From the IMG/VR virus record IMGVR_UViG_3300042691_031480, positions 1-42,258 of that record: a stretch of 42,258 nt of DNA; one strand, given 5' to 3'. The notes beneath the pieces are model-generated. The model searched no databases and was not told the origin of the DNA. It worked only from the letters and a program-made list of their open reading frames with translations. Origin of the DNA: a virus. Below are positions 5,595-24,294 of this stretch, one piece after another. A program made the translations under genes and the position numbers. Every line of letters starts with the position of its first letter. Position 1 is the first letter of the stretch.

Positions 5595-5788
5595 TGGAAG
5601 CCCCATTCGTCCGAGACCAGAATTCTAAAGCCCTTATAAATACTGACGTATCATCCATTACAGCTCGACGCCAGCAAAAGCGACAAGCACAGCAGGTTTC
5701 TGAGCTACAAAAAGAGATATCTGAAGTCAAAAATGACTTATTAGAAATAAAACAACTTCTTCAATCAATTCTGTCCAACCGAGGATAA
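5594..5788 (+). CDS. Small coiled-coil structural protein
   Basis: This 64-residue protein has an N-terminal segment with FVRDQNSKALINTDVSS, followed from about residue 25 by a charged heptad-type helix (QQVSELQKEISEVKNDLLEIKQ) predicted to form a coiled coil. Small proteins with a similar D-x-x-S-x-A-x-INTD opening followed by a coiled coil are common next to baseplate or fibre genes of marine T4-like phages; that is recalled and was not searched. The start overlaps the stop of the large upstream gene (TAATG). The following tail fibre gene starts 3 bases after its stop, so the three genes form one unit. A perfect late-promoter octamer lies inside it at 5635-5642. A role as trimeric connector or assembly factor is inference. 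Confidence 0.65.
   Translation: MEAPFVRDQNSKALINTDVSSITARRQQKRQAQQVSELQKEISEVKNDLLEIKQLLQSILSNRG
5635..5642 (+). promoter_or_regulatory. Late promoter-like octamer TATAAATA inside a gene
   Basis: The octamer TATAAATA is identical to the T4 late promoter consensus recognised by gp55-type sigma factors. It lies within the 64-residue gene, about 150 bases before the S74 tail fibre at 5792. It could give that fibre and the downstream genes extra late transcription. A chance match is possible in AT-rich coding sequence. Confidence 0.4.
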
Positions 5789-5791
5789 CAT

Positions 5792-7327
5792 ATGGCTACA
5801 TTAAATCTACGCCAAACTGCTGCTGTTAACGCTGGCGAAACCAATCAAAATCGTCCTTTAACCAATGCTGAAGTTGACGCCAACTTCATCAATTTAAACA
5901 CCGATAAATTAGAAAAGTCTGGCGGCACATTAACAGGCCTTCTTACATTACGTGCTGGCGCAGCAGGCACTAATGGTGCTCCACTTCGTTTCCAAGGTGG
6001 TACCAATTTAACAACTCCTGTCACAGGTGCCATGGAATTTGATGGTACCAATTTATACTTCACACCATCAGGATCACGTAAGACCGTTGCATTCACAGAT
6101 AGTAACATCACAGGTAACGCAGCAACTGCAACTACCTGGGCTACAGCTAGAACACTAACATTAACCGGTGATGTTACAGGTACTTCAGCAGCATTTGATG
6201 GGTCAGGTAACATTTCAATTGCCACAACTATTTCAGCAGATGCTACTGTATTAGGAACCGATACCACAGGTAATTACGTAGCAAGCATCACCAATGGTAG
6301 CTTTATGACTGGAGGTAATGGTGGCTCAGAAGGAGCTGCTCTTACATTGGCTGTAGACGCTACAAGTGCCAACACAGCTTCCAAAGTAGTTGCTCGTGAT
6401 GCTTCAGGTAATTTCAGTGCTGGTACTATCACAGCAACTCTTTCAGGTAACGCATCAACAGCTACTGCATGGCAAACAGCTAGAACATTAACATTAACTG
6501 GTGATGTCACAGGCACTTCAGCATCATTTGATGGTTCTGGAAATATCACTATTGCCACCACTATTTCAGGTGATGCCACAGTTTTAGGAACCGATACTAC
6601 AGGTAACTATGTTGCTAGTATTACTAATGGTAGCTTTATTACTGGTGGTAACGGCGGTTCTGAAGGCGCCGCCTTAACCATTGCGGTAGATGCTACCAGT
6701 GCTAACACAGCATCTAAGGTTGTCGCTCGTGATGCCTCAGGTAATTTCAGTGCTGGAACCATTACTGCTTCATTATCAGGTAATGCCACAACAGCAACAA
6801 CATTACAGACGGCTAGAAATATTCAAGGTGTATCCTTCAATGGATCAGGCGATATCACAGTAGTTACAGCAGGTACTGGTGTTTCAGTTTCAGGCACTTC
6901 AGTAAGTATCGGACAAGCTGTCGCAACATCAAGTAATGTAACTTTCGGGTCAATGCTTGTAGGTAGTGCCACTTGGCCTAGCGGAACTGTAACTGGACAA
7001 ATTCGTGCTTCTCATGACGTTGTGGCTTACTCTTCTTCAGATGCGCGTTTAAAGACAGATATCGAAACAATTCCAAATGCTTTAGAAAAAGTTTTACAGC
7101 TAAATGGTGTTACATTTACTTGGAACACATCAAATCAAGAGATTCATGGACATGAAGGGCGCGACACTGGTATTCTTGCACATGAAGTTGCTGCTGTTCT
7201 ACCTGAAGTTGTGACTACTCGTGAAGATGGATTCATGGCAGTACGCTATGAAAAGATGATTGGGTTGTTAATTGAAGCCGTCAAGGAATTGGATGCAAAA
7301 GTAAGTGCATGCACTTGTAACAAGTAA
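5792..7327 (+). CDS. Tail fibre with C-terminal self-cleaving chaperone (peptidase S74)
   Basis: The protein has 511 residues. The N-terminus (about 1-45, with RPLTNAEVDANFINLN) is a motif common at the start of phage fibre proteins and probably anchors it to the virion. The middle is Gly/Ser/Thr-rich beta sequence with two nearly identical 111-residue repeats (6137-6802) and the start of a third. The C-terminus (about 410-511) is an intramolecular chaperone of the endosialidase type: SSDARLKTDI, then GVTFTW, then ILAHEVAAVLPEV and a final helix IGLLIEAVKELDAKV. In this family the domain trimerises the fibre and cuts itself off at the serine before SD-x-RLK. It is probably a receptor-binding fibre. 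A second S74 fibre lies at 29763-32963 and shares sequence cassettes with it. Confidence 0.88.
   Translation: MATLNLRQTAAVNAGETNQNRPLTNAEVDANFINLNTDKLEKSGGTLTGLLTLRAGAAGTNGAPLRFQGGTNLTTPVTGAMEFDGTNLYFTPSGSRKTVAFTDSNITGNAATATTWATARTLTLTGDVTGTSAAFDGSGNISIATTISADATVLGTDTTGNYVASITNGSFMTGGNGGSEGAALTLAVDATSANTASKVVARDASGNFSAGTITATLSGNASTATAWQTARTLTLTGDVTGTSASFDGSGNITIATTISGDATVLGTDTTGNYVASITNGSFITGGNGGSEGAALTIAVDATSANTASKVVARDASGNFSAGTITASLSGNATTATTLQTARNIQGVSFNGSGDITVVTAGTGVSVSGTSVSIGQAVATSSNVTFGSMLVGSATWPSGTVTGQIRASHDVVAYSSSDARLKTDIETIPNALEKVLQLNGVTFTWNTSNQEIHGHEGRDTGILAHEVAAVLPEVVTTREDGFMAVRYEKMIGLLIEAVKELDAKVSACTCNK
6137..6802 (+). repeat. Two tandem 333-bp repeats inside tail fibre gene
   Basis: The unit starting at 6137 (W-A-TARTLTLTGDVTGTS...) recurs at 6470 (W-Q-TARTLTLTGDVTGTS...) with exact 333-base spacing. 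A degenerate third copy begins at 6803 (L-Q-TARNIQGVSFNGSGDI). The encoded units are almost identical, but the DNA has diverged at many third positions, so selection has kept the protein sequence. Confidence 0.85.
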
Positions 7328-7340
7328 GGGAGAATAACTC

Positions 7341-9089
7341 ATGGCATATTGTTCATGTAGTGGAGGACCGTGTGAAGAATCTGGTGCGTTTTACTGTTAT
7401 GAAATAGGTTGTGACGATTGTACTCCATCACCAACGGCGGCCCCAACCGCAGCTCCGTCACCCACTGAGGCCCCAACGGCATTCATACCACCAACCGCAG
7501 CTCCGTCACCCACTGAGGCCCCCACAGTAGCTCCTACCGAATCACCAACTGCGTCACCAACCGCAGCTCCGTCACCCACTGAGGCACCAACTGCATTCAT
7601 ACCACCAACAACGCCGACCGAGGCCCCGACCACTGCGCCGTCACCAACCGCAGCTCCGTCACCCACTGAGGCCCCAACGGCATTCATACCACCAACCGCA
7701 GCTCCGTCGCCCCCAACCGAAGCCCCGACCACTGCGCCGTCACCCACCGCAGCTCCTACGGCAGCATGCGTGGGTCAAGGTGGAGATTGTAGTTCAGGAA
7801 TTTGTTGCTCTGGTTTAGAGTGTTACGAAATAACAACTAATACATTTGTTTGTCAAAATCTATCGCCAACAGCGCCGCCAACGGTACCCCCGACAGCGCC
7901 GCCGCCAACGGTTCCGCCAACAGCACCACCGCCAACGGTTCCGCCAACGGTTCCGCCAACAGCTGCACCAACAGCACCTGCTTCTGGTGGAAAATGTTGT
8001 GGTGTTGATACAGGTAATATTTGTGCCGATGGATTCGTAGCAGAAAATCCTTGTCCAGCTGGATTAAGTCCATGTTCAACATTAGGTGCTACGTGCGGCC
8101 CAACAGCGCCGCCACCGACAGCGCCTCCAACGGTGCCACCAACAGCAGCGCCAACAGAACCCCCTTCTGGTGGAAAATGTTGTGGTCCTAGCACAAGTTA
8201 TTTTTGCGCAGATGGATTCGTAGCAGAAAATCCTTGTCCAGCTGGATTAAGTCCATGTTCAACATTAGGTGCTTGGTGCGGAGCCCCAACACCGCCACCA
8301 ACGGTCCCGCCAACGGTCCCGCCGACAGTACCACCGACGGTTCCTCCAACGGTACCACCGACAGTACCGCCAACAACAACACCGCCACCAACGGTCCCGC
8401 CGACAGTACCACCGACGGTACCTCCAACGGTTCCGCCAACGGTTCCGCCAACGGTTCCGCCAACAACAACACCTCCGCCGACAGTACCGCCAACGGTTCC
8501 TCCGACGGTTCCGCCAACAACAACACCGCCACCAACGGTTCCGCCAACGGTTCCTCCGACGGTTCCGCCAACAACAACACCGCCACCAACGGTTCCGCCA
8601 ACGGTTCCTCCGACAGTACCGCCAACGGTTCCTCCGACAGTACCGCCAACGGTTCCGCCAACAACAACACCTCCGCCGACAGTACCGCCAACGGTTCCTC
8701 CGACGGTTCCGCCAACAACACCACCTCCGCCGACCGTACCCCCAACGGTCCCGCCAACGGTCCCGCCGACAGTACCACCGACGGTTCCTCCAACGGTTCC
8801 TCCAACGGTTCCGCCAACAGTGCCGCCGACGCCAGCACCAACAGCAGCACCAACTTTACCTCCAATCGCACCTATTCCGGCTTCTAATGTTTCTATAGGA
8901 AGTGTAACTGTACATAAAGGAGGTACAGCTTTAGCTGGGGGTAATTATAGTCTAGCAACAATTTCACAGGATGGCGACGCAAATGCTAATCCTACATCTA
9001 TTAACCCGAACAGTACATCTAAGCCAGACAAGGTTGTACCACATGGTCTAGGTGAGTTTGTAAATTATAATCATAACACAGGAAGATAA
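7341..9089 (+). CDS. Pro/Thr-rich mucin-like protein with cysteine-knot-like modules
   Basis: This 582-residue protein has a GGGAGA ribosome site before the ATG. The first 30 residues hold six cysteines. Then come PTAAP/PTEAP linkers (about 30-140), a six-cysteine module at 7767-7853 with the spacing C-x6-C-x4-CC-x4-C-x8-C, more PT linker, two nearly identical 34-residue six-cysteine modules (7995-8096 and 8178-8279), and about 190 residues of TVPP/TTTPP repeats (about 8284-8850). A 70-residue, non-repetitive C-terminus (SNVSIGSVTVHKGG...) ends the protein. The C-x6-C-x4-CC pattern is that of knottins. Pro/Thr-rich linkers are typical mucin-type O-glycosylation substrates. No signal peptide is visible, so it is probably a virion surface protein whose disulfides form outside the cell. 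The gene lies between a tail fibre and the glycosylation island. Its GC-rich, repetitive DNA differs sharply from the AT-rich neighbours. I recognise no family for the whole protein. Confidence 0.8.
   Translation: MAYCSCSGGPCEESGAFYCYEIGCDDCTPSPTAAPTAAPSPTEAPTAFIPPTAAPSPTEAPTVAPTESPTASPTAAPSPTEAPTAFIPPTTPTEAPTTAPSPTAAPSPTEAPTAFIPPTAAPSPPTEAPTTAPSPTAAPTAACVGQGGDCSSGICCSGLECYEITTNTFVCQNLSPTAPPTVPPTAPPPTVPPTAPPPTVPPTVPPTAAPTAPASGGKCCGVDTGNICADGFVAENPCPAGLSPCSTLGATCGPTAPPPTAPPTVPPTAAPTEPPSGGKCCGPSTSYFCADGFVAENPCPAGLSPCSTLGAWCGAPTPPPTVPPTVPPTVPPTVPPTVPPTVPPTTTPPPTVPPTVPPTVPPTVPPTVPPTVPPTTTPPPTVPPTVPPTVPPTTTPPPTVPPTVPPTVPPTTTPPPTVPPTVPPTVPPTVPPTVPPTVPPTTTPPPTVPPTVPPTVPPTTPPPPTVPPTVPPTVPPTVPPTVPPTVPPTVPPTVPPTPAPTAAPTLPPIAPIPASNVSIGSVTVHKGGTALAGGNYSLATISQDGDANANPTSINPNSTSKPDKVVPHGLGEFVNYNHNTGR
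7767..7853 (+). other. Knottin-like six-cysteine module
   Basis: The encoded 29 residues have cysteines spaced C-x6-C-x4-CC-x4-C-x8-C, with CCSGLEC in the middle. This matches the inhibitor cystine knot pattern seen in small toxins and antimicrobial peptides. It sits between two Pro/Thr linkers. Confidence 0.6.
7995..8279 (+). repeat. Duplicated 34-residue six-cysteine module
   Basis: Two modules, 7995-8096 and 8178-8279, begin with CCG and share ADGFVAENPCPAGLSPC and STLGA. Each has six cysteines. A block of about 60 bases is identical in DNA, which indicates a recent duplication. A short Pro/Thr linker separates them. I recognise no family. Confidence 0.8.
8284..8850 (+). repeat. GC-rich 12-bp tandem repeats encoding TVPP
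   Basis: The DNA is built from variants of a CCN-ACN-GTN-CCN unit, interrupted at intervals by TTTPP-coding spacers. Third positions vary (ggt, gtt, gta), so the array is old or purified at protein level. Such arrays can lengthen or shorten by slippage or recombination in whole 12-base units without breaking the frame. Confidence 0.85.
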
Positions 9090-9096
9090 TTAAAAC

Positions 9097-10056
9097 ATGT
9101 CTACAATATTGGTTACTGGTGCAGGAGGATTTATAGGAGGTCATCTTGTCAAGAAGCTATCAGAATCTCACGAGGTTCGGGCTCTTGACAAGAAGCCTCT
9201 TTCCTCTTGGTATCAAATTACAGAGAACGTAACAAACATCGTGGGTGATTTAACTGATTATGAAGTTGCATTAAAAGCCACGGAAAATGTTGATGAAGTA
9301 TATCATTTAGCATGTGAAATGGGAGGTATAGGATTTATTGAATTAAATAAAATCCTATGTATGCTATCTGTTATTCCAGATACTAACACCATAAAAGCAG
9401 CACATGTAAATGGTGTTAAAAAGTTTTTGTTTGCATCTACAGCATGCATCTATCCTAAATATAAACAGCATACTGTAACCCCTGAACCATTAATGGAAGA
9501 CACTGCATATCCTGCGGACCCAGAAGATGGTTACGGATGGGAAAAATTGTTTATGGAACGCATGTGTCGGCATTTCTCAGAAGATTACGGTATGGATGTC
9601 AGGATTGTTCGATATCACAACGTCTTTGGTCCAGAAGGAACTTGGCAAGGGGGAAGAGAAAAGGCTCCTGCTGCTTTGTGTAGAAAAGTTATCGAGGCAG
9701 TTAAAACACAATCTAACGAGATAGAAATTTGGGGCGATGGAGAACAACGCCGTTCATTCTTGTACATTGATGATGCCATTGAAGGCACACTACGTATCAT
9801 GGAAAGTCCACACCAATCTCCATTTAATATTGGTTCAGATAGAATGGTGTCTGTGAATGAATTAGTTGATATTATTGAGAATGTAGCCGGCGTGACTGTC
9901 AACAGAAAGTATGTCTCTGGACCATTAGGAGTCCGTGGAAGAAATTCTCATAATGATAAAGTCAAGGCTCTATTGAATTGGGAACCATCTATTTCGTTAG
10001 AAGAAGGCGTATTAAAAACTTATACGTGGATACAATCTCAGTATGAGCAACTATAA
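9097..10056 (+). CDS. GDP-mannose 3,5-epimerase-like NAD-dependent enzyme
   Basis: This 319-residue extended short-chain dehydrogenase/reductase has a TGAGGFIG nucleotide-binding loop at 7-14, Cys117 in ASTACIYP, the Y146-x3-K150 catalytic pair, KAPAA around Lys189 and GVRGRN at about 278-283. This set (CIYP, GTW-x-GGREKAPAA, FNIGSD, GVRGRN) matches plant-type GDP-mannose 3,5-epimerase, whose known active site uses the Cys, Tyr, Lys, a second Lys and an Arg at these places. That enzyme turns GDP-D-mannose into GDP-L-galactose (and GDP-L-gulose) in the cytoplasm. The start has no strong ribosome site. The next gene starts 14 bases before its stop, and that gene resembles a fucosyltransferase, which suits an L-galactose donor. 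The exact product is inferred. Confidence 0.85.
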   Translation: MSTILVTGAGGFIGGHLVKKLSESHEVRALDKKPLSSWYQITENVTNIVGDLTDYEVALKATENVDEVYHLACEMGGIGFIELNKILCMLSVIPDTNTIKAAHVNGVKKFLFASTACIYPKYKQHTVTPEPLMEDTAYPADPEDGYGWEKLFMERMCRHFSEDYGMDVRIVRYHNVFGPEGTWQGGREKAPAALCRKVIEAVKTQSNEIEIWGDGEQRRSFLYIDDAIEGTLRIMESPHQSPFNIGSDRMVSVNELVDIIENVAGVTVNRKYVSGPLGVRGRNSHNDKVKALLNWEPSISLEEGVLKTYTWIQSQYEQL

Positions 10057-11059
10057 GTATTGGGATAATATAAATTTTACTAACAACTATGTACCAAGAG
10101 ACAAATATATTCTATTTGATCCATATCCTGCTGGTTTTAATAATGTTAGAATGTCCTATGAAATTGCCGCATGCATGGCATATGCTTTAAATAGAATTTT
10201 AGTAATATCAGAACACAGAAGAATAGCTGGATTAGATGAACAAATAAAATTTTCTGAATTCTATGATTTAAATAATCTAGGTATACAAATATTAGAAAAA
10301 TCTAGTTTAAAAGAAAGTTTTAATATTAAGAAAATAACAAACCGAGCACATGAAGTTTTATATAAATTAGATGTTTGCAAAGAAAGAGAGAGTTTCCAAG
10401 GTAATGAAATACTTAATTTATTTGATATGGATGATGATATATTATATTTTCCAAGAAATTTATTCGGTAATTTCTACCACGCTATAGCAAGTAGTAGAAT
10501 GCAAGAAATTAAAACTTTCATTGCCAAAAATTTCCATTACAAAGAAAATATTTTTGATTTAGCACAAAATGCTATTAATGAAAAATTAGGTGATTTAGAT
10601 TATTATGCTATACATATTCGAAGAAATGATTTTAATATGGGTTGGCACATAGGCACTATTGTTTTACCTGCTGAAGAAATTTTACAAACTATTGAATCTT
10701 TTATACCAAAAAAATGTAAGTTGTATATTGCAACAGATGAAATAGACAAAAGTTATTTTGAACCTTTTTTTAAAGATTATGATGTGTCTTTTTATGAAGA
10801 TTTGAACATTGACCATTCTTCTAAAAAATATTCTATAGCTATAGAGCAAATTATTTGTGCTAGAGCAATTTCTTTTGTTGGATGTTATAATTCTACATTT
10901 TCTACCTATATTAATAGACTCAGAGGATATATGAAAGACATTGAAGATAAAAGATGTTTACATTATTGTAAAAAATTTTTTGAACAAACAAATGATGAAA
11001 ATAATTTTTTAGGATTATTTTCTAGAGAATATAGTGAAGCTTGGAATTTTAACAATTGA
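10043..11059 (+). CDS. O-fucosyltransferase-like glycosyltransferase
   Basis: The protein has 338 residues. The N-terminus has D-P-Y-P-AGFNNVRMSYE (about 26-40) and an AxAxxLNRxLV-type helix, and the middle has HIRRND at 191-196. In GDP-fucose O-fucosyltransferases and related alpha-fucosyltransferases, a GxxN loop near the N-terminus and an H-x-R-R-x-D motif bind the GDP-sugar. The C-terminal half (YIATDEIDKSYF, then ICARAISFVGCYNSTFSTYI) also fits this fold. It overlaps the epimerase gene by 14 bases. A GDP-L-galactose donor is plausible because L-galactose is 6-hydroxy-L-fucose. The acceptor is unknown. The gene is markedly AT-rich. Confidence 0.68.
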   Translation: MSNYKYWDNINFTNNYVPRDKYILFDPYPAGFNNVRMSYEIAACMAYALNRILVISEHRRIAGLDEQIKFSEFYDLNNLGIQILEKSSLKESFNIKKITNRAHEVLYKLDVCKERESFQGNEILNLFDMDDDILYFPRNLFGNFYHAIASSRMQEIKTFIAKNFHYKENIFDLAQNAINEKLGDLDYYAIHIRRNDFNMGWHIGTIVLPAEEILQTIESFIPKKCKLYIATDEIDKSYFEPFFKDYDVSFYEDLNIDHSSKKYSIAIEQIICARAISFVGCYNSTFSTYINRLRGYMKDIEDKRCLHYCKKFFEQTNDENNFLGLFSREYSEAWNFNN

Positions 11060-11069
11060 AATTATAACG

Positions 11070-11781: not shown

Positions 11782-12603
11782 ATGAATAAAGTATCATGTG
11801 TAATGACAACGTATAGAAGATTTCAGTGTGTAGAACGTTCTATTGCTATGTTTTTAGAACAGGATTACGATAACACGGAACTTATCATCTATAATACAGA
11901 TATTGAAAATCCTTTAGCATTAGATGAAACTTTTAATGGTCTTGAAAATAAAATCAAGGTCATTAATAATAATATTGATTTTGAAACAAAAGAATATTAC
12001 AATAATACTGGATCTATACGTAGAGATGCTAAACATTTTGCAACAGGTGATTTGTACATCACATGGGATGATGATGATATCTTTTTTCCTTGGAATATTA
12101 GACAGGGCGTGGCGGGATTAGTAGAATCAAAAAAATCTTCATGGAAACCTAAATTTAGTTTCATGAAACACCGTGGGCATGAACCTGAATTAGCTTTTAA
12201 CTATATGGAAGCTAGTATCGTAACCAAGTTAGAAAAAATTAATCAATATGGTTTCAAAAATAAGACAGGACCAGAACATTTAGGATGGTTTGAAGAATTA
12301 CAAAAAACCCATGATATGGAGGAAAGTGATTTTGCTATACCTGCATATTGTTTCTATTGGTCAGACCCAGAAGATGTTGGTGGGCATAAACAAAGTAATT
12401 TGAATGAGTTTGTACGAGAAGATAATTTTCAACGTCATAAAATATACACAACAGATTACGCAAAAAGAAAATTCACAAGAAAATCACTTTCAGATTATAA
12501 AGAATTGTTTGCTCCTTTTCTACCAATTTTAGAAAACTTTAAAGAAGCTAAACCTGAAAGGTTTCATAACTACATATTACCTAATATAGACAAACTACGA
12601 TGA
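11782..12603 (+). CDS. Family 2-like (GT-A) glycosyltransferase
   Basis: The ATG at 11782 gives 273 residues starting MNKVSCVMTTYRR, a typical GT-A beginning. An in-frame ATG at 11722 adds 20 hydrophobic residues overlapping the methyltransferase gene and is less likely. Next come RSIAMFLEQDYDNTELIIYNT (the first Rossmann half) and ITWDDDDIFFPWN, with the metal-binding acidic cluster at 96-99. Its stop overlaps the next start (ATGA), so the two transferases are probably co-translated. Donor and acceptor cannot be read from the sequence. Confidence 0.8.
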   Translation: MNKVSCVMTTYRRFQCVERSIAMFLEQDYDNTELIIYNTDIENPLALDETFNGLENKIKVINNNIDFETKEYYNNTGSIRRDAKHFATGDLYITWDDDDIFFPWNIRQGVAGLVESKKSSWKPKFSFMKHRGHEPELAFNYMEASIVTKLEKINQYGFKNKTGPEHLGWFEELQKTHDMEESDFAIPAYCFYWSDPEDVGGHKQSNLNEFVREDNFQRHKIYTTDYAKRKFTRKSLSDYKELFAPFLPILENFKEAKPERFHNYILPNIDKLR

Positions 12604-13589
12604 AAAAAATATCAGTGATTATGCCTTTTTTAAAGGAAGGTAAAGAACCTTTAAATACTATTATAAGTATGAATAGAACGGCTGATCCTTCTAGTTTTGA
12701 AATTTTAGCAATTTGTGACGGTGAAGAAAATTATGAACATGAAAATGAAATAAGGAAAATACCTAACGTTAAATATTTTAAGAACGAAGAACAATTAGGC
12801 CCGCATCTATCTACTGCTAATGGTGTTTACGAGGCCGAGGCACCTGTTGTTTTAATGATAGATGGGCATATGAGATTTTCTTCTGATAATTGGGTGGAGA
12901 AAATTTACAATATTGCAACTAATAGTCCTAAAACTGTATGGTGTACAAAAAGTTATGTTTTAACTAATGAGCAAGAACCTTTTTTCCTTGATCCTTATAA
13001 AGACATACGTGAGGTATCTACTCATTATTCCATTGGTTCTAAAATACATTTCTTTGATGAAAAGAATGGTGCTATGCGCGGCGGCGGAGTATTCTCATTG
13101 TCTTGGTCTAGCCATTCTATGACCAGTTCTAGGGATAATATCATAGACTGTGTTTTAGGTGCAAATTATATTGGAACTACTGAATGGTTAAAAACCATAA
13201 AGTCTTTTGATGGTTTACGAGGCTGGGGTGGTTGTGAACAACACATAAGTATAAAAAATTGGTTATTAGGTGGTGATTGCCGAGGCATTCCCTCGGTTAG
13301 TATTGGTCATATTTTTCGGAAAACACCTCCGTATTATACACCATCTAAATATAACTTGTATAACAATTTATATACGGTGTACACTCTTTTACCAGATGAA
13401 CTTGACATAACAGAAAAAATACTTAAATTTATGGAAGAACAGCCTGAGTTCAATAATGCAATGGAAATTGTAGAACAGAACAAAAACATGATAAGTGAAC
13501 ATAGAGAGCATTATATGAATTTAAAGGTTCAAAGTTTAAAGCAGTTCCTTAGCAATAACAAAATTGATTTTCAACATGTATGGACTTAA
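12600..13589 (+). CDS. Glycosyltransferase resembling polypeptide GalNAc-transferases (GT27-like)
   Basis: This 329-residue GT-A protein begins ISVIMPFLKEGKEPL. Instead of DxD it has D88-G-H90 in LMIDGHMRFSSDNWVEK. Further on are GWGGCEQHISIKNWLLGGD (about 208-226) and IPSVSIGHIFRK (about 230-241). In polypeptide N-acetylgalactosaminyltransferases the metal is held by a D-x-H motif and a later His in a GH-(I/V)-FR motif, and W-GGEN-x-E-x-S-x-x-W-x-CGG lies between. All three landmarks are recognisable here. The ricin-type lectin domain of the animal enzymes is missing, so this is the catalytic part only. It starts inside the stop of the previous transferase. A mucin-like Pro/Thr protein, a natural acceptor type for such enzymes, lies 3.5 kb upstream. 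The sugar donor is unproven. Confidence 0.72.
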   Translation: MKKISVIMPFLKEGKEPLNTIISMNRTADPSSFEILAICDGEENYEHENEIRKIPNVKYFKNEEQLGPHLSTANGVYEAEAPVVLMIDGHMRFSSDNWVEKIYNIATNSPKTVWCTKSYVLTNEQEPFFLDPYKDIREVSTHYSIGSKIHFFDEKNGAMRGGGVFSLSWSSHSMTSSRDNIIDCVLGANYIGTTEWLKTIKSFDGLRGWGGCEQHISIKNWLLGGDCRGIPSVSIGHIFRKTPPYYTPSKYNLYNNLYTVYTLLPDELDITEKILKFMEEQPEFNNAMEIVEQNKNMISEHREHYMNLKVQSLKQFLSNNKIDFQHVWT

Positions 13590-13610: not shown

Positions 13611-14141
13611 ATGAAAAACAGTGAACTATTTTCCAATTATGGTTATGCGTATATCTCTAATGTACTAACCAAAGAACAATGTGAAAGATTTTCCAATATC
13701 TTGTTAGATATGAAAAATGCCAATCAATTAGCGCATGAAGGTTCGGTGGATGCTTTAATCTACAAAGAATCCTATGGGGGTAATCACGAAGAATTTGAGG
13801 CAGCATTGCGTGAAATTCAACCAAGGATTGAAGAAGAAATTGGTTTAAAAATGAAGCCAGCAAATAGCTATGGAAGAATTTATTATAATGGAGGAACATT
13901 ACCCCCTCATAAGGATAGAAGTGTTTTGGATTACACTCTTTCCATTACACTTAAGCACAATTTAGAAAAAGATTGGCCGTTATGGTGTACTGATAAAAAG
14001 GGTAATAATGTTCCCCTATATATTGCAGAAGGTGATGGAGGAATAATGATTGGGAATTCAATGACACATTGGAGAGATCCGCTAGTATGTTCACCCGAAC
14101 AATTTAGTATTAATTTGTTTATGCATTGGTCATTGGTATAA
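13611..14141 (+). CDS. 2-oxoglutarate/Fe(II)-dependent oxygenase
   Basis: The protein has 176 residues with an AAGGTGA ribosome site. The iron-binding triad is H100-x-D102 in LPPHKDRS and H153 in SMTHWRDPL. The surrounding beta-strands (SYGRIYYNGG, YTLSITL, GDGGIMIGN, FSINLFMHW) fit the double-stranded beta-helix fold of prolyl-hydroxylase-like oxygenases. The basic residue usually found about ten positions after the last His is not obvious, but phage members with HWR-x-P and a later LFxHW look similar. Likely substrates are proteins or sugars. Given the Pro-rich protein upstream, prolyl hydroxylation is possible but speculative. It sits between the transferases and the DUF6065-like gene. Confidence 0.72.
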   Translation: MKNSELFSNYGYAYISNVLTKEQCERFSNILLDMKNANQLAHEGSVDALIYKESYGGNHEEFEAALREIQPRIEEEIGLKMKPANSYGRIYYNGGTLPPHKDRSVLDYTLSITLKHNLEKDWPLWCTDKKGNNVPLYIAEGDGGIMIGNSMTHWRDPLVCSPEQFSINLFMHWSLV

Positions 14142-14153
14142 TAGGGGTTAAAT

Positions 14154-15704
14154 ATGATAAAGGTTACGGCGTATGAGGTGGGTCTTAAATTAGAAATGAG
14201 GCCGGCCTCACCTAAAAGAGATTGGATGGATGAAGCGCGTTCAAAAAATCCTTATCGGTGTTTACCATTAAATATTGCTAATGGTTACGGATGGGAAATT
14301 GTTAATCCTTCAAAATTCACTTTAGAATGGAACGGCGGAAAAAATCCTAAAGATGTTGTAGTTAAAAAACAGGCAGGCACTATTTTTCCGGATAATCATT
14401 TTGGTGAGGGAACATTTACATGGCACACCGGGTATCTATTTCGGACAGAATATCCCTATGCTCTGTATGTTACAGGTCCGCCGAATTTTCCTAAACCTAA
14501 TGTAATACCTTTATCTGGTATTGTTGAAACCTATTGGACTCCATTTACATTTACGATGAATTGGAGATTTACACAGCCTGGATCTGTATCGTTTGAACCA
14601 GGAGATATTTTATGTCAGATTTTTCCAGTGAACATTTCTTTATTTGATGATGTTAAACCCGAGATACGCCATTTATCTGAAGATCCTGAATTTGAAGAAA
14701 AATACTGGAATTGGAATATTTCTCGTGTAGCTTTTAGTAGCAATCCAACACGAGGAGATGTTTGGCAAAAGGATTATTTTCAGGGTAAATATGCACAGTT
14801 GAATGAACAAACTGGTTGTCCTTTCCATGTGAAAAGAACACCAGAAGAAGAGGAAAAAAATCCCCATAGAACTAAACCTAATGTGCCAGAGTTTGTAAAC
14901 TTAGCGGAAAAACCCTACACAACACCGCCAAAATATGAGGAGTTGTTGAAAAAAATACGTGAGAAAAAATTTGAAACTAAACCTGAGGCCCCTGAAAAAA
15001 ACATGAACTTCAATATCAAATCCACATCAGAAAATACATTACCTGACATTGCAGAAAAAATTAATACAAGTAATAAATTAGTTTTAATGTATGTAATGTC
15101 TAATTCTACATGTGAAGAAAATGACATCAAGACAAATACACAGCAAGATTTGGAACAAAAAATAAAGGATTCTTATTTAGATAAAGTTGATTATCACGTA
15201 TTGTGTATTTCAGAACACAACATGCCTTTCCCTAAAATACAAACCGATGTCCTTTATTATTTTGCTCCTAAAAATCAGACACCATTATTTTTCCGTGACC
15301 GGTTTCAAGTACTGGTTGATTTGGATCATGATATTGAGACTGCAATTAAAATGATGAATACCGGGGCCTCATATTTTGAGGCTAAGTTTGATGATAAGAC
15401 TAAAGAAAATATTCTGAAAACAGAAGCTTACTTGAAAGAAGATACAACTAAATTTCCCTCATCATTCAAAATGGCTAGAAACCTAGCTAAGGAAATGTGG
15501 AAAACTGGCAAAAATGCCGCTAAAGGATTACCAATTTTAGTACCAGCAGATGTGGGAGTGAGTCGTTTCAGTACGTGTGAAATTTGCGAACATTTGGATT
15601 CTAAGGACTTCCGTTGCACTCAATGTGGTTGTTTCATGAAGACCAAGACACAATTGGCATCAGCTTCTTGCCCAGTGGGTAAGTGGGGAGAGTATACCGG
15701 TTAA
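14154..15704 (+). CDS. DUF6065-like protein with C-terminal zinc-binding motif
   Basis: The protein has 516 residues. The N-terminal 230 or so (GYGWEIVNPSKFTLEWNGG, IPLSGIVETYWTPFTFTMNW, FEPGDILCQIFPV) look like the DUF6065 family, whose function is unknown; this is from memory. A charged Pro/Glu/Lys-rich linker follows. The C-terminal 45 residues hold C-x2-C-x8-C-x2-C-x-C (CEIC...RCTQCGCF) and a final CPVGKW, a small zinc-ribbon-like motif common in phage proteins. DUF6065 genes often stand near oxygenases, as here, where a 2OG oxygenase precedes it by 12 bases. It may be an accessory or oxygenase-like protein acting on the same substrate. The role is uncertain. Confidence 0.6.
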   Translation: MIKVTAYEVGLKLEMRPASPKRDWMDEARSKNPYRCLPLNIANGYGWEIVNPSKFTLEWNGGKNPKDVVVKKQAGTIFPDNHFGEGTFTWHTGYLFRTEYPYALYVTGPPNFPKPNVIPLSGIVETYWTPFTFTMNWRFTQPGSVSFEPGDILCQIFPVNISLFDDVKPEIRHLSEDPEFEEKYWNWNISRVAFSSNPTRGDVWQKDYFQGKYAQLNEQTGCPFHVKRTPEEEEKNPHRTKPNVPEFVNLAEKPYTTPPKYEELLKKIREKKFETKPEAPEKNMNFNIKSTSENTLPDIAEKINTSNKLVLMYVMSNSTCEENDIKTNTQQDLEQKIKDSYLDKVDYHVLCISEHNMPFPKIQTDVLYYFAPKNQTPLFFRDRFQVLVDLDHDIETAIKMMNTGASYFEAKFDDKTKENILKTEAYLKEDTTKFPSSFKMARNLAKEMWKTGKNAAKGLPILVPADVGVSRFSTCEICEHLDSKDFRCTQCGCFMKTKTQLASASCPVGKWGEYTG

Positions 15705-15714
15705 TATAGATACC

Positions 15715-15722
15715 TATAAATA
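15715..15722 (+). promoter_or_regulatory. T4-type late promoter
   Basis: A perfect TATAAATA lies between the DUF6065-like gene and the dehydrogenase. By T4 rules, transcription would begin near 15728, leaving a leader of only about 14 bases before the ATG at 15742, with no clear ribosome site. Confidence 0.65.
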
Positions 15723-15741: not shown

Positions 15742-16581
15742 ATGGTCTATAAAATAGGTATAGTCGGATTAGGATATGTTGGTAGCGCTATTGCAAATTC
15801 ATATCGTAATGGTAATACAAAAAATATTGAATTGTATACCTATGATATTGACTCATCTAAAAATCCTAACTGTAAAACTTTAAATGATTTGGTAAATTTA
15901 TCTGAAATAATATTCATTGCTGTACCAACACCAATGAATAAAGATGGATTTTGTGATACTAGCATTGTTGAAAATATTGTGGAGGACATAAATAAATTTT
16001 CTACAACAAAAATTATTATTATCAAATCCACTATAATCCCAGGCACAACTGAAAGATTACAAGAAAAATATTCAACACAACATATATTTTTTAGTCCAGA
16101 ATTTTTAACAGAAGCTAACCACTTAAATGATTATTTGAAACAGTCATTTTTAATTCTTGGTAAACCTGAAAAAATCTCTACAAAAATTTGCAATTATGTT
16201 CTAGAACATCAAACATCAGTTTTGAAGTTTGTTAGAAAAACTATGGTAGTATCTGCTACTAGTGCTGAAATGTTTAAATATCTGACTAATGCATTTTTAG
16301 CTACTAAAGTTTCATTCGCAAATGAAATGTTTCAACTTTCTAAAATAATTGGTGTCGATTGGAATGATTTACAAGAAATGATTATGATTGATGATAGGTT
16401 AGGAAAAACTCATTGGAAAGTGCCAGGACCAGATGGTCACCTAGGTTATGGGGGAAATTGTTTTCCTAAAGATGTATGTGCATTAATAAAACACGCAGAA
16501 ACTATGAACATACCAACTCCAGTATTAAATGCTACATGGAAGCGCAATAAGGAAATAGACCGGTTTAATGAAAACACATGA
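15742..16581 (+). CDS. UDP-glucose/GDP-mannose dehydrogenase-family protein lacking C-terminal domain
   Basis: The protein has 279 residues. It has the NAD-binding GLGYVG (9-14), FIAVPTPMNKDG (about 58-69), KSTIIPGTTE (about 95-104), FFSPEFLTE (about 116-124), the helix EMFKYLTNAFLATKVSFANE and the catalytic GYGGNCFPKD (235-244, nucleophile C240). These are the landmarks of enzymes that oxidise the C6 alcohol of a nucleotide sugar to an acid. Full-length enzymes have about 390-430 residues. This one stops soon after the central helix and lacks the C-terminal nucleotide-sugar-binding domain, with no remnant of it downstream. It may act as a reduced enzyme or need a partner. An epimerase follows after 10 bases. 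Confidence 0.82.
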   Translation: MVYKIGIVGLGYVGSAIANSYRNGNTKNIELYTYDIDSSKNPNCKTLNDLVNLSEIIFIAVPTPMNKDGFCDTSIVENIVEDINKFSTTKIIIIKSTIIPGTTERLQEKYSTQHIFFSPEFLTEANHLNDYLKQSFLILGKPEKISTKICNYVLEHQTSVLKFVRKTMVVSATSAEMFKYLTNAFLATKVSFANEMFQLSKIIGVDWNDLQEMIMIDDRLGKTHWKVPGPDGHLGYGGNCFPKDVCALIKHAETMNIPTPVLNATWKRNKEIDRFNENT

Positions 16582-16591
16582 AGATAAAACA

Positions 16592-17641
16592 ATGAGTAAA
16601 AATATATTAATAACAGGAGTTGCTGGTTTATTAGGTTCTCGGTTATCTGACTGGATTATTGATAATCATCCAAATTATAATATTATAGGTATTGATGATT
16701 TAAGTGGTGGTTACGTTTCTAATGTAAATCCTAAAGTTAACTTTCACCAGTTAGATTTAAGTAATAATCCTGATGATGTTGAAAAACTATTTAGCAGATA
16801 CAATTTTGATATTGTGTATCATTTTGCAGCCTATGCAGCAGAAGCATTGTCCCCTTTTATTAGAAAATATAATTATGTAAACAATTTATTGTCTACTACT
16901 GAGATAATAAATAATTGTATAAAATATAATGTCAGTAGATTGGTATTTACTTCTTCTATGGCAGTTTATGGCCACGGTACTAGTTCGCCTCCGTTTCATG
17001 AGGATATGCCGCGGTCACCTATTGATCCTTATGGTATTGCTAAATCTGCTTGTGAACAAGATATTGAAGTAGCTGGTCAGCAGCATGGCCTAGATTGGTG
17101 TATTATACGTCCACATAACATGTATGGTGCTAAACAGAACATCTGGGATAGTTATCGTAATGTTCTTGGAATTTGGATGTATAAAAAGTTGAATGACCAA
17201 CCATTTACTATATATGGTGATGGACTACAAGAACGAGCTTTTAGCTGTATTGATGATTCGGTAGAATGTTTGTGGAAAGCTGGCTGGGTTCCAGAAGCTT
17301 CAAAACAAATAATTAATCTCGGCGGCATTCATTATGTCACTATTAAAAAAGCGGCAGAAACATTGTGTGATGTGGTAGGAGGGGCGGAAGTCATTCATCT
17401 TCCTCCTAGACACGAAGTAAAGCACGCATATCCCACATGGCAAAAGTCGGTGGATATTCTTGGGTTTGAACACAAGACGAATCTTCATGATGGATTAGAA
17501 AAGATGTGGAAATGGGCTCAACAACAACCAATACGTCCTAGACAAGTTTGGTCTGAGTATGAATTGGATAAAGGCATTTATGATTATTGGAAAAAAGAAA
17601 GTCTACTAAAAAATTCTAATCTTGTTATAGAGTTAATATAA
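16592..17641 (+). CDS. NAD-dependent nucleotide-sugar epimerase/dehydratase
   Basis: The ATG at 16592 puts the NAD-binding strand at the N-terminus (KNILITGVAGLLGS) and leaves 10 bases after the previous stop, the same spacing as at 11070. An ATG at 16568 would overlap the dehydrogenase gene. The 349 residues show TGVAGLLG, YHFAAYAAE, TSSMAVYG (catalytic Ser), DPYGIAK (catalytic Tyr and Lys), RPHNMYG and YGDGLQERAF. This is an extended SDR sugar epimerase or dehydratase close to UDP-glucose 4-epimerase. The substrate cannot be fixed from sequence. After a UDP-glucose dehydrogenase, a UDP-uronate 4-epimerase role is one possibility. Confidence 0.8.
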   Translation: MSKNILITGVAGLLGSRLSDWIIDNHPNYNIIGIDDLSGGYVSNVNPKVNFHQLDLSNNPDDVEKLFSRYNFDIVYHFAAYAAEALSPFIRKYNYVNNLLSTTEIINNCIKYNVSRLVFTSSMAVYGHGTSSPPFHEDMPRSPIDPYGIAKSACEQDIEVAGQQHGLDWCIIRPHNMYGAKQNIWDSYRNVLGIWMYKKLNDQPFTIYGDGLQERAFSCIDDSVECLWKAGWVPEASKQIINLGGIHYVTIKKAAETLCDVVGGAEVIHLPPRHEVKHAYPTWQKSVDILGFEHKTNLHDGLEKMWKWAQQQPIRPRQVWSEYELDKGIYDYWKKESLLKNSNLVIELI

Positions 17642-20791: not shown

Positions 20792-21500
20792 ATTTCTTTA
20801 TTAGACTCATAATATCTGGTCGAGATTTGTGAACTGCAATATAATCTGGACCATGAAAATCTTCATCCCAAAGATGATATTCTTTGAATTCAATTCCGTC
20901 CGGTGATATCTTACCCCAGACATATCCGAGAGGATTCAACATTTTATAAAAATCAATCAAGAGATTCTTTGTTAGCACATTCATGAAACTATATTCAAAT
21001 TGAATAAGGGCAACATGTCCTTTATTTAAGATATTTTCAAACCCCTGGAGTACTTCATATTCATGTCCTTCAGTATCTATTTTTAAATAATCCACATAAC
21101 CAATATCATGCATTTTCAAGTAGACATCACCCGGTAATACTACACCAGTTGTCCACACAGAATCATCATGTCGAATATCTGAAATGGTTGTTGTAACTCT
21201 ATCATTATGTGGTACATACTTTACTGGAATCTCTCTGAAACTATTTGATAATCCAAAGTTGTTGGGAACCATTTTATCATCTAACGTTTGTTCTTGTAAC
21301 ATATGACGATATGTTCGAGTACTTATTTCAAACATATGAATGTGTGCATTATGATGAAATGAACGCGCCATTTGTGTCCAATACCCCCGATTACATCCTA
21401 CATCTAGAATGGTGTTAAATCCTATAGGAATCAATTTTTCAAGAAGTTGATATTCTCCATGTGTTTGGAATTCTTCAATTGCATTATATTCTGGTAACAT
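20790..21500 (-). CDS. FkbM-family methyltransferase (leftward operon)
   Basis: The protein has 236 residues. It has LDVGCNRGYWTQ (32-43, the SAM loop), MFEIS (the acidic residue after strand 2), YLKIDTEGHEYEVLQGFEN (the FkbM D-x-EG-x-E motif) and GHVALIQFEYS. It is a likely SAM-dependent O-methyltransferase acting on a glycan. The start is coupled to the stop of the glycosyltransferase upstream (TAATG, one base shared), and the terminator at 20764 follows directly. The two genes form one leftward operon, unlike everything around them. Unlike the copy at 11070 it keeps the canonical Glu in the motif. The two are only distantly alike, so a local duplication is unlikely. Confidence 0.83.
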   Translation of the reverse strand: MLPEYNAIEEFQTHGEYQLLEKLIPIGFNTILDVGCNRGYWTQMARSFHHNAHIHMFEISTRTYRHMLQEQTLDDKMVPNNFGLSNSFREIPVKYVPHNDRVTTTISDIRHDDSVWTTGVVLPGDVYLKMHDIGYVDYLKIDTEGHEYEVLQGFENILNKGHVALIQFEYSFMNVLTKNLLIDFYKMLNPLGYVWGKISPDGIEFKEYHLWDEDFHGPDYIAVHKSRPDIMSLIKK

Positions 21501-24175
21501 TACAAAGCCCCTTTAGGATAAAATTCAGTTTTTCCAACATGTCTGCAAATGATACTGGTATCAACAAAAATTTTAGCACCCACTTCTTGTGCCCGGCGAC
21601 AAAAATATACATCTTCTGATATAGTGTTGGCATGATTTAAAGCCGATGTATATACAAATTGTGGATAACCAATTTTTCTTATAACATCAGATTTAACAAG
21701 TACACAACCAAAACCGCACCCATCAATTTCTTGTAACCCCTTGTTAGATAATAAACTTGTAATGAACACATTCGATACGCCGCCCTGTGCATTCTTTCTA
21801 TAAATCTCAGGAATTTCTACACCATCTTTTCTTTGAATATACACACCTGACACCATGTCCACGTTGTGGGACAGCAATTTTACTAAAGTGTCTTGTGGCA
21901 AAACAATATCACTGTCTACAGAAAACAGATAATCAAATCGTTCTGCCCAATTGGCAATTAAATTACGTATCTGGTCAATTTGATACCCGAAGAAATATTG
22001 GAATGTTATTTCCACATCATCAGGAACATCTAAATCATAGATGCTTTTAAAAGTTTCAGGCTCAACATATTTGTTGGTAGGAATAGCCAACAGAATTTTT
22101 TTCTTTTTCATGTCTTGTCTATTTCGAATGAATTTGCTCGTTCTGTCTTGTTCTAAACCATTCACTTTATAATCGTTTAAAGGATTGATATCATTATAAG
22201 AGTACACAATTTTTTGTAGTGCTTTCACCTTCTTAGGATCAGCTTGTTCTAAAATGGAATAGAACGTGGCATTATCTCCGCCAGCTCGGAACCAGTTCCC
22301 AGCGTCATCTTGAAACTCGGTTAATGGGATATTGTTAACCAAATATTTTTTGAATGTTCGTAAATGAGTATAAGGAATAGCCCAAGCAAAATGATGTTGT
22401 CGGTATGTTTTAGTTTCTTTTACATGTTCTGGGTATTCTTGAGCTATTAAAGGAATATCATCCGCTTGTGACCACATACTTCCATATGTGAATTCAGTTG
22501 ATCCATCGTACAGGGTATTGTAATAATGAAAGATGTTATTGTCAGGAATTAAACAATCATCACCATCAAGTAGCATGATGATATCATCATCAGATGCCTT
22601 CAGGAATCCCATGACTTGATTATGTACAGCACCCATATTCTGTTCATTATTAATTACAATGAATTTCTTTCGTAAGGCTTCAGGAAACAGCTCTAATGTT
22701 TCTTGTACTATTTTCAAGGAGTTATCCGTAGATGCATCATTGATAAGTACCATTTGATAATTATCATAATCCTGTGACGCCACCGACAATATGCATTTTC
22801 TAATATATTCTTCGGCATTATAAAATGGTGCAATTACAGTTATAGGTTGTTGCGGGTATGACCGAACAACATTCCATTCTTCTGAATTACTAAATCTCCG
22901 TTGAAACACTTCATGTACTTTTTGATTGATACGAGACACTTTACGGTACTCATCAACAGAAAGATACATATTTAACTTTTTGTAGATATGCTGTTTCCAT
23001 TGTAGAGCCACGGTATCCCAACCAGCAATATCATGAACGATATTGCAGTAATGCATCTTTTGTTGATGAACATACTTGTTGTAGTAGGCATCACAAGTTA
23101 ATTCAACAAATTTTTCCACTTGGTTCATTTTATCTATAGATGGAAATAATCCATTAGGTTCAATAGCATAATCCATTTTATAGCATGCCAAGTCTAACGC
23201 AGTTTCTTCTAAAGCCCCAAATCGTGTTGTAATGATGGGTGTGTTATACAGTAACGATTCTAAACTTGAAATGCCAAATGTTTCAGGGAACGCGCCCGGG
23301 AAAATCATGAAAGATGCTTTAGCTAGGTGATGTGCAATTTCTGGCTGAGGAATTACACCAGTAAACGTAACATCTAAAGTCTTGAAATCATCACGTTCAG
23401 TCAATTCATGAAATTTTATTTCTTGTTCATCTGGTGGAGCTCCGTCACGGAATCTATAGTAACCTCCAATGATAGTTAGCTTGGCTTGTGGAATTTTCGT
23501 TTTCACTTTAGGCCAAACATGTTCCAATAATGGTAACATGCCTTTTGTTATAGAGGCATTGTAAATGAACAAGTTGGGATCTTTTTGTGTAATGTTAACT
23601 TCAGGAATCCATTTCTTTGCCCCGTTTCGAGTCATGAAAATTTTATTTTTCAACACTTCAAAATTTCTTTTGCGCCCGTGGTCACAGTTTGAAACATATG
23701 TGGTATGAAAATCCGACAATGTGAAAATTTCATCAATATATTTCTGAGTGACTAGTTCTTCAACTAAGTGATCCCCAGAACAAAAAGTGTCGTGCAGCCA
23801 AAGAACTTTATATTTTGCACTTTGTTGTAGTTGGGTGAATACATTTGTGGGATAGGATTTCCCTATCATGTTATTGTTTTCCCAATGTTCTCCTGAAAGG
23901 AATGGAACCACTGACCGAGAGCCAATCATTACATCACAGGTATAATTGTTGGGATGATGTAACTTTTGAAGGTTCACATATTCCACACCATCATATATCC
24001 CTTCTTTGGCACGACTGTCATCACAATGGTTAAAGACAGTCACTTGAAATCCTAGTTCTTGAAGTTCTTTCGCCATGTAAATAATGGCTGATTCTGACCC
24101 GCCAAGACCATATTTTTCAATAGTAGTAGCGTCATATGTTAGCCCAATAACATCAATTATAGCAATTTTTATCAT
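21500..24175 (-). CDS. Three-domain glycosyltransferase (GT4 + GT2 + GT-A)
   Basis: The protein has 891 residues and no membrane segment. Domain 1 (about 1-400) is a GT-B transferase: YGLGGSESAIIYMAKEL at the start, VLWLHDTF, and FPETFGISSLESLLYNTPIITTRFGALEE, the E-x7-E motif of GT4. Domain 2 (about 415-680) is GT2: ITVIAPFYNAEEYIRKCILSVASQDY, then NDASTDNS and MLLDGDD. Domain 3 (about 690-891) is another GT-A fold: ILLAIPTNKYVEPETF, FSVDSDIVLP (DxD) and DGCGFGCVLV, SEDVYF. Domain 3 resembles the stand-alone protein at 37764. Such fusions build several sugar linkages in sequence. Ribosome site GAGGT is at 24181-24185. Because the gene has a sigma70-like promoter, it may act early. The target glycan is unknown. 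Confidence 0.85.
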   Translation of the reverse strand: MIKIAIIDVIGLTYDATTIEKYGLGGSESAIIYMAKELQELGFQVTVFNHCDDSRAKEGIYDGVEYVNLQKLHHPNNYTCDVMIGSRSVVPFLSGEHWENNNMIGKSYPTNVFTQLQQSAKYKVLWLHDTFCSGDHLVEELVTQKYIDEIFTLSDFHTTYVSNCDHGRKRNFEVLKNKIFMTRNGAKKWIPEVNITQKDPNLFIYNASITKGMLPLLEHVWPKVKTKIPQAKLTIIGGYYRFRDGAPPDEQEIKFHELTERDDFKTLDVTFTGVIPQPEIAHHLAKASFMIFPGAFPETFGISSLESLLYNTPIITTRFGALEETALDLACYKMDYAIEPNGLFPSIDKMNQVEKFVELTCDAYYNKYVHQQKMHYCNIVHDIAGWDTVALQWKQHIYKKLNMYLSVDEYRKVSRINQKVHEVFQRRFSNSEEWNVVRSYPQQPITVIAPFYNAEEYIRKCILSVASQDYDNYQMVLINDASTDNSLKIVQETLELFPEALRKKFIVINNEQNMGAVHNQVMGFLKASDDDIIMLLDGDDCLIPDNNIFHYYNTLYDGSTEFTYGSMWSQADDIPLIAQEYPEHVKETKTYRQHHFAWAIPYTHLRTFKKYLVNNIPLTEFQDDAGNWFRAGGDNATFYSILEQADPKKVKALQKIVYSYNDINPLNDYKVNGLEQDRTSKFIRNRQDMKKKKILLAIPTNKYVEPETFKSIYDLDVPDDVEITFQYFFGYQIDQIRNLIANWAERFDYLFSVDSDIVLPQDTLVKLLSHNVDMVSGVYIQRKDGVEIPEIYRKNAQGGVSNVFITSLLSNKGLQEIDGCGFGCVLVKSDVIRKIGYPQFVYTSALNHANTISEDVYFCRRAQEVGAKIFVDTSIICRHVGKTEFYPKGAL

Positions 24176-24279: not shown

Positions 24280-24294
24280 CTTTTGAGGAGCCAA

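What the first reader, a model, noticed from the sequence alone, without database searches (positions are those of the whole stretch)
12600..13589. GT27-like glycosyltransferase in a T4-like phage
The protein has D-G-H in place of DxD, W-GGCE-x-x-x-S and a GHIFR motif in the order and spacing of polypeptide GalNAc-transferase catalytic domains, without the lectin domain. This family is best known from animals. A phage homologue suggests protein-linked, rather than lipid- or DNA-linked, glycosylation.
Basis: partly seen in the sequence, partly recalled or inferred. Interest (0 to 1): 0.7.

Follow-up and report, generated by a model that had tools for sequence, protein, structure and literature searches.

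The report
Phage enzyme resembling animal mucin glycosyltransferases
A T4-like phage carries, among its late tail-fibre genes, a sugar-transferring enzyme whose nearest solved relatives are the animal enzymes that start mucin glycosylation, and just upstream in the same gene block lies a Thr/Pro-repeat protein that looks like a ready-made target, so the phage may sugar-coat its own fibres.

Summary
The ORF and motifs are as described. The sequence relationship to GT27 is real: in a PDB-wide search the single protein retrieves polypeptide GalNAc-transferases first (7e-14), and a profile of five phage homologues retrieves all 16 GT27 sequences at 2e-31 to 9e-23, ahead of chondroitin synthase (1.6e-15) and ordinary GT2 enzymes (N-half only). 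D88, H90 and H237 align with the Mn ligands D224, H226 and H359 of GalNAc-T2. Two GT27 active-site residues are not kept: E334 is C212, and N335 is E213, an acid at the position that holds the catalytic base of inverting relatives. It is therefore a GT27-like, lectin-less phage/bacterial branch; retaining chemistry and GalNAc cannot be assumed. Context favours a protein acceptor: the gene lies between two T4-type late promoters with a tail-fibre gene, a 582-aa mucin-like PT-repeat protein, sugar-nucleotide enzymes and other glycan enzymes. A relative on a 115-kb contig also sits beside a poly-Ser protein. But PT-repeat proteins occur in many phages without such an enzyme, so the substrate pairing is a hypothesis. 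The metal site could not be checked in 3D (pLDDT below 50 there). Verdict: new variant of a known kind.

The parts
12600..13589 (+). GT27-like GT-A glycosyltransferase, 329 aa, no lectin domain
   Evidence: (PF00535 2.5e-8)
12861..12869 (+). D88-G89-H90, DxH metal motif (aligned with D224 and H226 of GalNAc-T2)
   Evidence: alignment; DxH in four of the five relatives aligned with it, DCD in L004/L006
13224..13238 (+). W209-G-G-C212-E213: aligned with W331-GG-E334-N335 of GalNAc-T2; acid at the xED-Asp (catalytic base) position
   Evidence: xED meaning from PMC7185993
13305..13319 (+). G236-H237-I-F239-R240 (aligned with G-H359-V-F361-R362 of GalNAc-T2)
5635..5642 (+). T4-type late promoter octamer TATAAATA, start of the putative transcription unit
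5792..7327 (+). tail fibre protein with C-terminal endosialidase-type chaperone (Peptidase_S74)
   Evidence: 1.1e-16
7341..9089 (+). 582-aa mucin-like Pro/Thr-repeat protein with Cys-rich knots; candidate acceptor
9097..10056 (+). NDP-sugar epimerase/dehydratase (GDP-fucose synthase/GalE superfamily; exact activity not assigned)
10043..11059 (+). O-FucT-type (PF10250) fucosyltransferase-like protein
   Evidence: 2.7e-22; relative in Synechococcus phage S-SCSM1
11067..11774 (+). FkbM-family methyltransferase (start at 11067 by inspection; ORF caller gives 11034)
11782..12603 (+). second GT2-like glycosyltransferase (not GT27-like); start by inspection, ORF caller gives 11722
13611..14141 (+). 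2OG-Fe(II)-oxygenase-like protein (HKD at 100-102, H153); assignment by motif and by annotation of phage neighbours only
14154..15704 (+). DUF6065 protein with C-terminal zinc ribbon
15715..15722 (+). next late promoter octamer TATAAATA, probable start of the following unit
15742..16581 (+). UDP-glucose dehydrogenase-like protein, 279 aa, without the C-terminal domain
16568..17641 (+). NDP-sugar epimerase (GalE/4,6-dehydratase superfamily)

Best explanation
The gene encodes a soluble, metal-dependent GT-A glycosyltransferase whose catalytic domain is homologous to GT27 but belongs to a separate phage/bacterial branch. It is probably a late protein. In the infected cell it most likely transfers a sugar from a UDP-sugar to Ser/Thr of the phage's own fibre-associated proteins, first of all the Pro/Thr-repeat protein encoded a few genes upstream in the same unit. 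Neighbouring enzymes (O-FucT-like, GT2, FkbM methyltransferase, epimerases, UDP-glucose dehydrogenase) would extend and decorate that first sugar, giving a glycosylated, mucin-like appendage. Shown: homology, alignment of the metal-ligand residues, late-gene context, a Ser/Thr-rich neighbour here and in one relative. Inferred: UDP-sugar donor, Ser/Thr acceptor, identity of the acceptor, order of steps. Open: which sugar, and whether the linkage is alpha (retaining, as GT27) or beta (inverting, as suggested by E213).
For: GT27 sequences are the top hits of P0001, of relatives L002 and L013/L023, and of the five-member profile (16 GT27 sequences 2e-31 to 9e-23, then K4 chondroitin synthase 1.6e-15). 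The single-sequence match to GalNAc-T10 runs on into the segment after GHxFR (residues 191-268). Foldseek ranks 1-41 are all GT27 for both models. Seven of seven TATAAATA octamers lie on the + strand in intergenic DNA 27-157 nt before a gene, P about 1e-9 under uniform placement; the GT gene lies between those at 5635 and 15715, together with the fibre and the PT-repeat gene. The PT protein has 144 Ser/Thr; 76 of them have Pro at -1 and +3, against 13 expected after shuffling. Its repeat units vary 90:12:12 at codon positions 3:2:1, so the peptide appears to be under selection. In G001 the homologous gene is followed, three genes on, by a 1053-aa protein with 241 Ser and poly-Ser tracts. Phage-encoded virion protein glycosylation is established in mycobacteriophages (Freeman 2023, as cited in PMC12363180).
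Against: C212/E213 replace E334/N335 of GalNAc-T2. PT-repeat proteins are common in phages without this enzyme: none of 83 such IMG/VR loci carried a GT27-like gene in the stored flank. Only 2 of the 5 loci with close homologues have a strongly Ser/Thr/Pro-rich neighbour. No donor, acceptor or activity has been measured. Large GT clusters in cyanophages may build free glycans instead (S-SCSM1 cluster).
Confidence: 0.5

Rival explanations
1. It is a glycan-chain enzyme: a GT27/GT7/chondroitin-synthase-clade transferase that adds a sugar to another sugar of a glycan attached elsewhere (fibre glycan started by a neighbour GT, or a free or host-surface polysaccharide), probably with inverting chemistry.
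For: E213 sits at the xED-Asp position that is the catalytic base of inverting GT-A enzymes and is variable in retaining ones (PMC7185993); all five relatives aligned with it also have E or D there. K4 chondroitin synthase is the next profile hit. The same operon has other GTs, NDP-sugar enzymes and an FkbM methyltransferase, as in polysaccharide loci.
Against: DxH and GH[IV]FR, GT27/GT60-type features, are kept; the best hits are GT27, not GT7 or CHS. PF02709 (Glyco_transf_7C) is not found in P0001 and only in one of six relatives. Two homologues are isolated single GT genes among structural genes, without a polysaccharide pathway nearby.
Confidence: 0.27
2. It glycosylates modified phage DNA (5-hydroxymethyl pyrimidine), as other phage GTs do.
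For: Phage GTs that hypermodify DNA exist (Pyle 2024, as cited in PMC12619734). G004, which carries a homologue, has a thymidylate-synthase-family gene.
Against: No TET/JBP match in the five records (but no control genome rang either, so weak) and no thymidylate-synthase match in four of five; the records are fragments. The gene lies in a late tail-fibre unit, whereas T4 DNA glucosyltransferases are early/middle genes (own knowledge).
Confidence: 0.07
3. GT60-like chemistry: it adds GlcNAc to hydroxyproline made by the neighbouring 2OG oxygenase in the Pro-rich repeat protein.
For: GT60 shares the DxH motif with GT27 and also glycosylates polypeptides (PMC7185993; Skp1 hydroxyproline from own knowledge). 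A 2OG-oxygenase-like gene follows directly (13611) and the acceptor candidate is 30% Pro.
Against: No match of P0001 or its relatives to the GT60 Pfam model PF11397. The 2OG gene has no Pfam or PDB match, and 2OG oxygenases are common in cyanophages without this GT.
Confidence: 0.08

Closest known systems
CAZy GT27, polypeptide GalNAc-transferases (GalNAc-T2, -T10, Drosophila PGANT9, Toxoplasma GalNAc-Ts)
   Same: Homologous catalytic domain; DxH plus GHxFR; W331, F361, R362 and Y367 equivalents; exact WGG-to-GHxFR spacing; match continues past GHxFR
   Different: E334 to C, N335 to E, H365 to P; no lectin domain, no signal anchor or stem; cytosolic phage protein; donor and anomeric outcome unknown
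GT2-CHS / GT7 (K4 chondroitin synthase, beta-1,4-galactosyltransferases)
   Same: Same GT-A clade 5 of PMC7185993; acid at the xED-Asp position
   Different: DxH instead of DxD; profile E-value about 16 orders of magnitude weaker than the best GT27; no Glyco_transf_7C match in P0001
Mycobacteriophage virion-glycosylating GTs (Che8 gp110, Corndog gp38)
   Same: Phage-encoded enzymes that glycosylate virion proteins
   Different: Targets there are capsid and tail tube; no sequence comparison was made here; no mucin-like acceptor known in that system
Cyanophage GT clusters (Synechococcus phage S-SCSM1)
   Same: T4-like phage, O-FucT-like gene beside 2OG oxygenases, epimerases and GTs
   Different: No full-length GT27-like gene found in 50,697 phage records with P0001, L002 or L023

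Membership tests
GT27 polypeptide GalNAc-transferase | Best sequence/profile relationship to GT27 rather than other GT-A families | tested here: met
   control GT2 of the same operon negative
GT27 polypeptide GalNAc-transferase | DxH and a C-terminal His as metal ligands (D224, H226, H359) | tested here: met
   aligned residues D88, H90, H237; sequence only
GT27 polypeptide GalNAc-transferase | The three metal ligands cluster in 3D | tested here: inconclusive
   model residues 205-247 have pLDDT below 50 and coordinates are not given
GT27 polypeptide GalNAc-transferase | WGGE[NQ] motif (E334, N/Q335) | tested here: not met
   WGGCE in P0001; WGG[DR][ED] in near relatives
GT27 polypeptide GalNAc-transferase | C-terminal ricin-type lectin domain | tested here: not met
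   ORF ends 89 residues after GHIFR; no Pfam lectin
[quoted passage not shown]
   biochemistry needed
GT60 (PF11397) | Match to the GlcNAc (GT60) profile | tested here: not met
GT7 / GT2-CHS | DxD metal motif and Glyco_transf_7C match | tested here: not met
   DGH at 88-90; no PF02709 match in P0001
GT7 / GT2-CHS | Acid at the xED-Asp base position | tested here: met
   E213; E or D in all five relatives aligned with it
T4-like late gene | TATAAATA late promoter upstream on the same strand | tested here: met
   5635, followed by 15715; 7 of 7 octamers intergenic
Phage virion-glycosylation system | Glycan on virion protein dependent on the phage GT | not testable with these tools
   no virions or mass spectrometry

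The most novel reading that the evidence does not exclude
A phage that makes its own mucin: a GT27-like initiating transferase, extending and capping enzymes and a dedicated Pro/Thr-repeat acceptor in one late transcription unit, producing densely O-glycosylated tail appendages, and using an enzyme that combines the GT27 metal site with an inverting-type catalytic acid.
Probability: 0.3. Interest if true: 0.82.

Novelty: new variant of a known kind. Interest (0 to 1): 0.6.

Why it matters
GT27 is textbook animal and protist biology. A phage/bacterial branch with the same metal-site motifs but an acid at the inverting base position is a natural test case for how retaining and inverting chemistry diverged inside one GT-A clade. 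If the acceptor is the PT-repeat protein, phages would have a self-contained mucin-type O-glycosylation module, which bears on adsorption, stability and recognition of marine T4-like phages, and offers small soluble enzymes for making O-glycoproteins in bacteria.

Tried and rejected
Direct searches with P0001 alone found nothing in IMG/VR, GTDB contigs or INPHARED. A first DNA motif pattern returned nothing, and a second had one N too few and did not match the window itself, so searches are void; the corrected pattern and a looser one found the relatives. Group L003/L010/L011/L012/L014 (WGGQ.VELGIKA, DAH) also hits GT27 weakly but lacks the acid; set aside as a second branch. Two structure models were poor in the C-terminal half, so no statement on 3D ligand geometry is made. 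The converse test of PT proteins versus GT27-like genes was negative. A codon count restricted to perfect PTVP units was circular and was replaced by an unconditioned one. An animal-to-phage transfer of the gene is not supported: the relatives are other phages and a Bacillaceae plasmid.

Full report
Observation. Window 12600-13589 (+) is an intact 329-aa ORF that starts at ATG. It overlaps the end of the upstream GT2 gene by four bases, and no competing frame exists on the other strand.

Family. Pfam gives only the generic PF00535 (2.5e-8, residues 5-121); neither PHROGs nor NCBIfam has a specific family. Against all PDB sequences, phmmer returns GT27 polypeptide GalNAc-transferases as the first 14 hits (GalNAc-T10, 7.4e-14). 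In the printed alignment D88, H90, W209, H237, F239, R240 and Y245 fall on D224, H226, W331, H359, F361, R362 and Y367 of GalNAc-T2. The match to GalNAc-T10 continues past GHxFR to residue 268. A GT2 from the same operon finds no GT27, so the result is not a generic GT2 effect. A profile of five phage homologues finds all 16 GT27 sequences at 2e-31 to 9e-23, then K4 chondroitin synthase (1.6e-15), then other GT2 enzymes over the nucleotide-binding half only. Foldseek with two models ranks GT27 structures 1 to 41. Those models have mean pLDDT 58-62 and TM-scores of only 0.4-0.5, and Foldseek scores include sequence, so this is supporting evidence, not proof.

What differs from GT27. Position 334 (E in GalNAc-T2) is C212 and position 335 (N) is E213. 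Relatives read WGGDE (three), WGGRD (one) and WGFEE (one, L025). The second of these positions is the xED-Asp, the catalytic base of inverting GT-A enzymes, which is variable in retaining families. GT27 and GT60 (retaining, DxH) form a clade with GT7 and GT2-CHS (inverting) in the analysis of PMC7185993. The phage branch thus combines the GT27/GT60 metal site with the inverting-type acid. The lectin domain, signal anchor and stem are absent. GT60 (PF11397) is not matched. The claim "it is a GT27 enzyme" is therefore lowered; the claim "it works like a GT27 enzyme on protein" stays open.

Relatives. A DNA motif scan (TGG GGN GGN ... GGN CAY NTN TWY MG, checked against the window) of 2.9 million viral contigs gave few true relatives: contigs behind L013 (114.8 kb, 29% identity, E 4e-41), L015 (78 kb), L002 and L004, plus L025 through an alignment search. 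No match exists in 50,697 phage records with P0001 or L002, and only partial, GT2/TarP-type matches with L023. One full-length relative lies on a Cytobacillus plasmid (24%), itself closest to GalNAc-T10 (7e-21). In these collections the branch is rare, and it is phage and bacterial.

Context. The window is the tail module of a T4-like phage: gp10-like protein first, gp13/14/15 last, as in S-WAM1. Between them lie fibres with an S74 chaperone, collagen-like fibres, and GT, methyltransferase and NDP-sugar genes. The T4 late-promoter octamer TATAAATA occurs seven times, all on the + strand, all in the 5.5% of positions that touch intergenic DNA, 27-157 nt before a gene (P about 1.5e-9 with uniform placement; octamers of the same composition touch intergenic DNA in 13% of cases). 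That this octamer is the T4 late promoter is own knowledge. The GT gene lies between the octamers at 5635 and 15715, in a unit that starts with the S74 fibre and the Pro/Thr-repeat protein. This argues for a virion-assembly-stage role and against DNA modification.

Candidate acceptor. The 7341-9089 protein (582 aa) has 177 Pro and 111 Thr, with repeats PTVP, PTAA and SPTEAP and small Cys-rich knots. 76 Ser/Thr have Pro at -1 and +3 (shuffled mean 13, maximum 23). Repeat units differ mostly at third codon positions (90 of 114 differences), so the amino-acid sequence appears to be maintained. In a 50-residue scan it reaches 84% Ser/Thr/Pro; the only comparable protein in 13 scanned loci is the 1053-aa poly-Ser protein (74%), third gene downstream of the GT27-like gene of G001. 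The other three homologue loci have no such neighbour, and 83 phage loci with PT-repeat proteins carry no GT27-like gene in their stored flank. The pairing is therefore suggestive only.

Mechanism (inferred). UDP-sugar and a divalent metal bound by D88, H90 and H237; transfer to Ser/Thr of the PT protein; extension by the O-FucT-like protein and GT2; methylation by FkbM; donors made or modified by the epimerases and the UDP-glucose dehydrogenase. Whether the first sugar is GalNAc, and alpha or beta, is unknown. The main rival is sugar-to-sugar transfer in the same pathway.

Known parallels. Mycobacteriophages glycosylate capsid and tail-tube proteins with their own GTs (Freeman 2023, as cited in PMC12363180; the original paper was not held). 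So phage protein glycosylation is not new; a GT27-like enzyme with a mucin-like partner would be. No paper describing a phage GT27 homologue was found, within an open-access library only.

Noticed in passing
window 24283-27015 and 21500-24175: A 910-aa collagen-like protein (GFTGSxGD repeats, PF01391 6.7e-31) is divergent from an 891-aa protein with GT-B-type, GT2 and a further GT-like stretch on the minus strand: possibly a second fibre/GT pair.
   Followed up: partly
window 5635, 15715, 17637, 18087, 24198, 29720, 39575: Seven exact TATAAATA octamers, all on the + strand and intergenic: T4-type late promoters that divide the module into units.
   Followed up: yes
window 13611-14141: Protein with a 2OG-oxygenase HxD...H pattern but no Pfam or PDB match; PHROG calls its relatives ferrochelatase, which looks like a mislabel.
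   Followed up: partly
window 15742-16581: UDP-glucose dehydrogenase-like gene of 279 aa keeps YGGNCFPKD but lacks the C-terminal UDP-binding domain.
   Followed up: no
window 14154-15704; L020:14053-14511: DUF6065 protein ends in a zinc ribbon (CxxC..CxxCGC..CPxGKW) that by eye also occurs in a separate gene near the GT27-like gene of G001.
   Followed up: partly
L003, L010, L011, L012, L014: A second phage GT branch with DxH and WGGQ/M.VE[LI]GI...GHVFRH; L014 is also closest to GT27 in the PDB (8.7e-7) but has no acid at the xED position.
   Followed up: partly
L020:2079-5240 (minus): 1053-aa protein with 241 Ser in tracts such as SSSSCSSWDSSSC, using all six Ser codons, third gene downstream of the GT27-like gene.
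   Followed up: partly
   Followed up: partly
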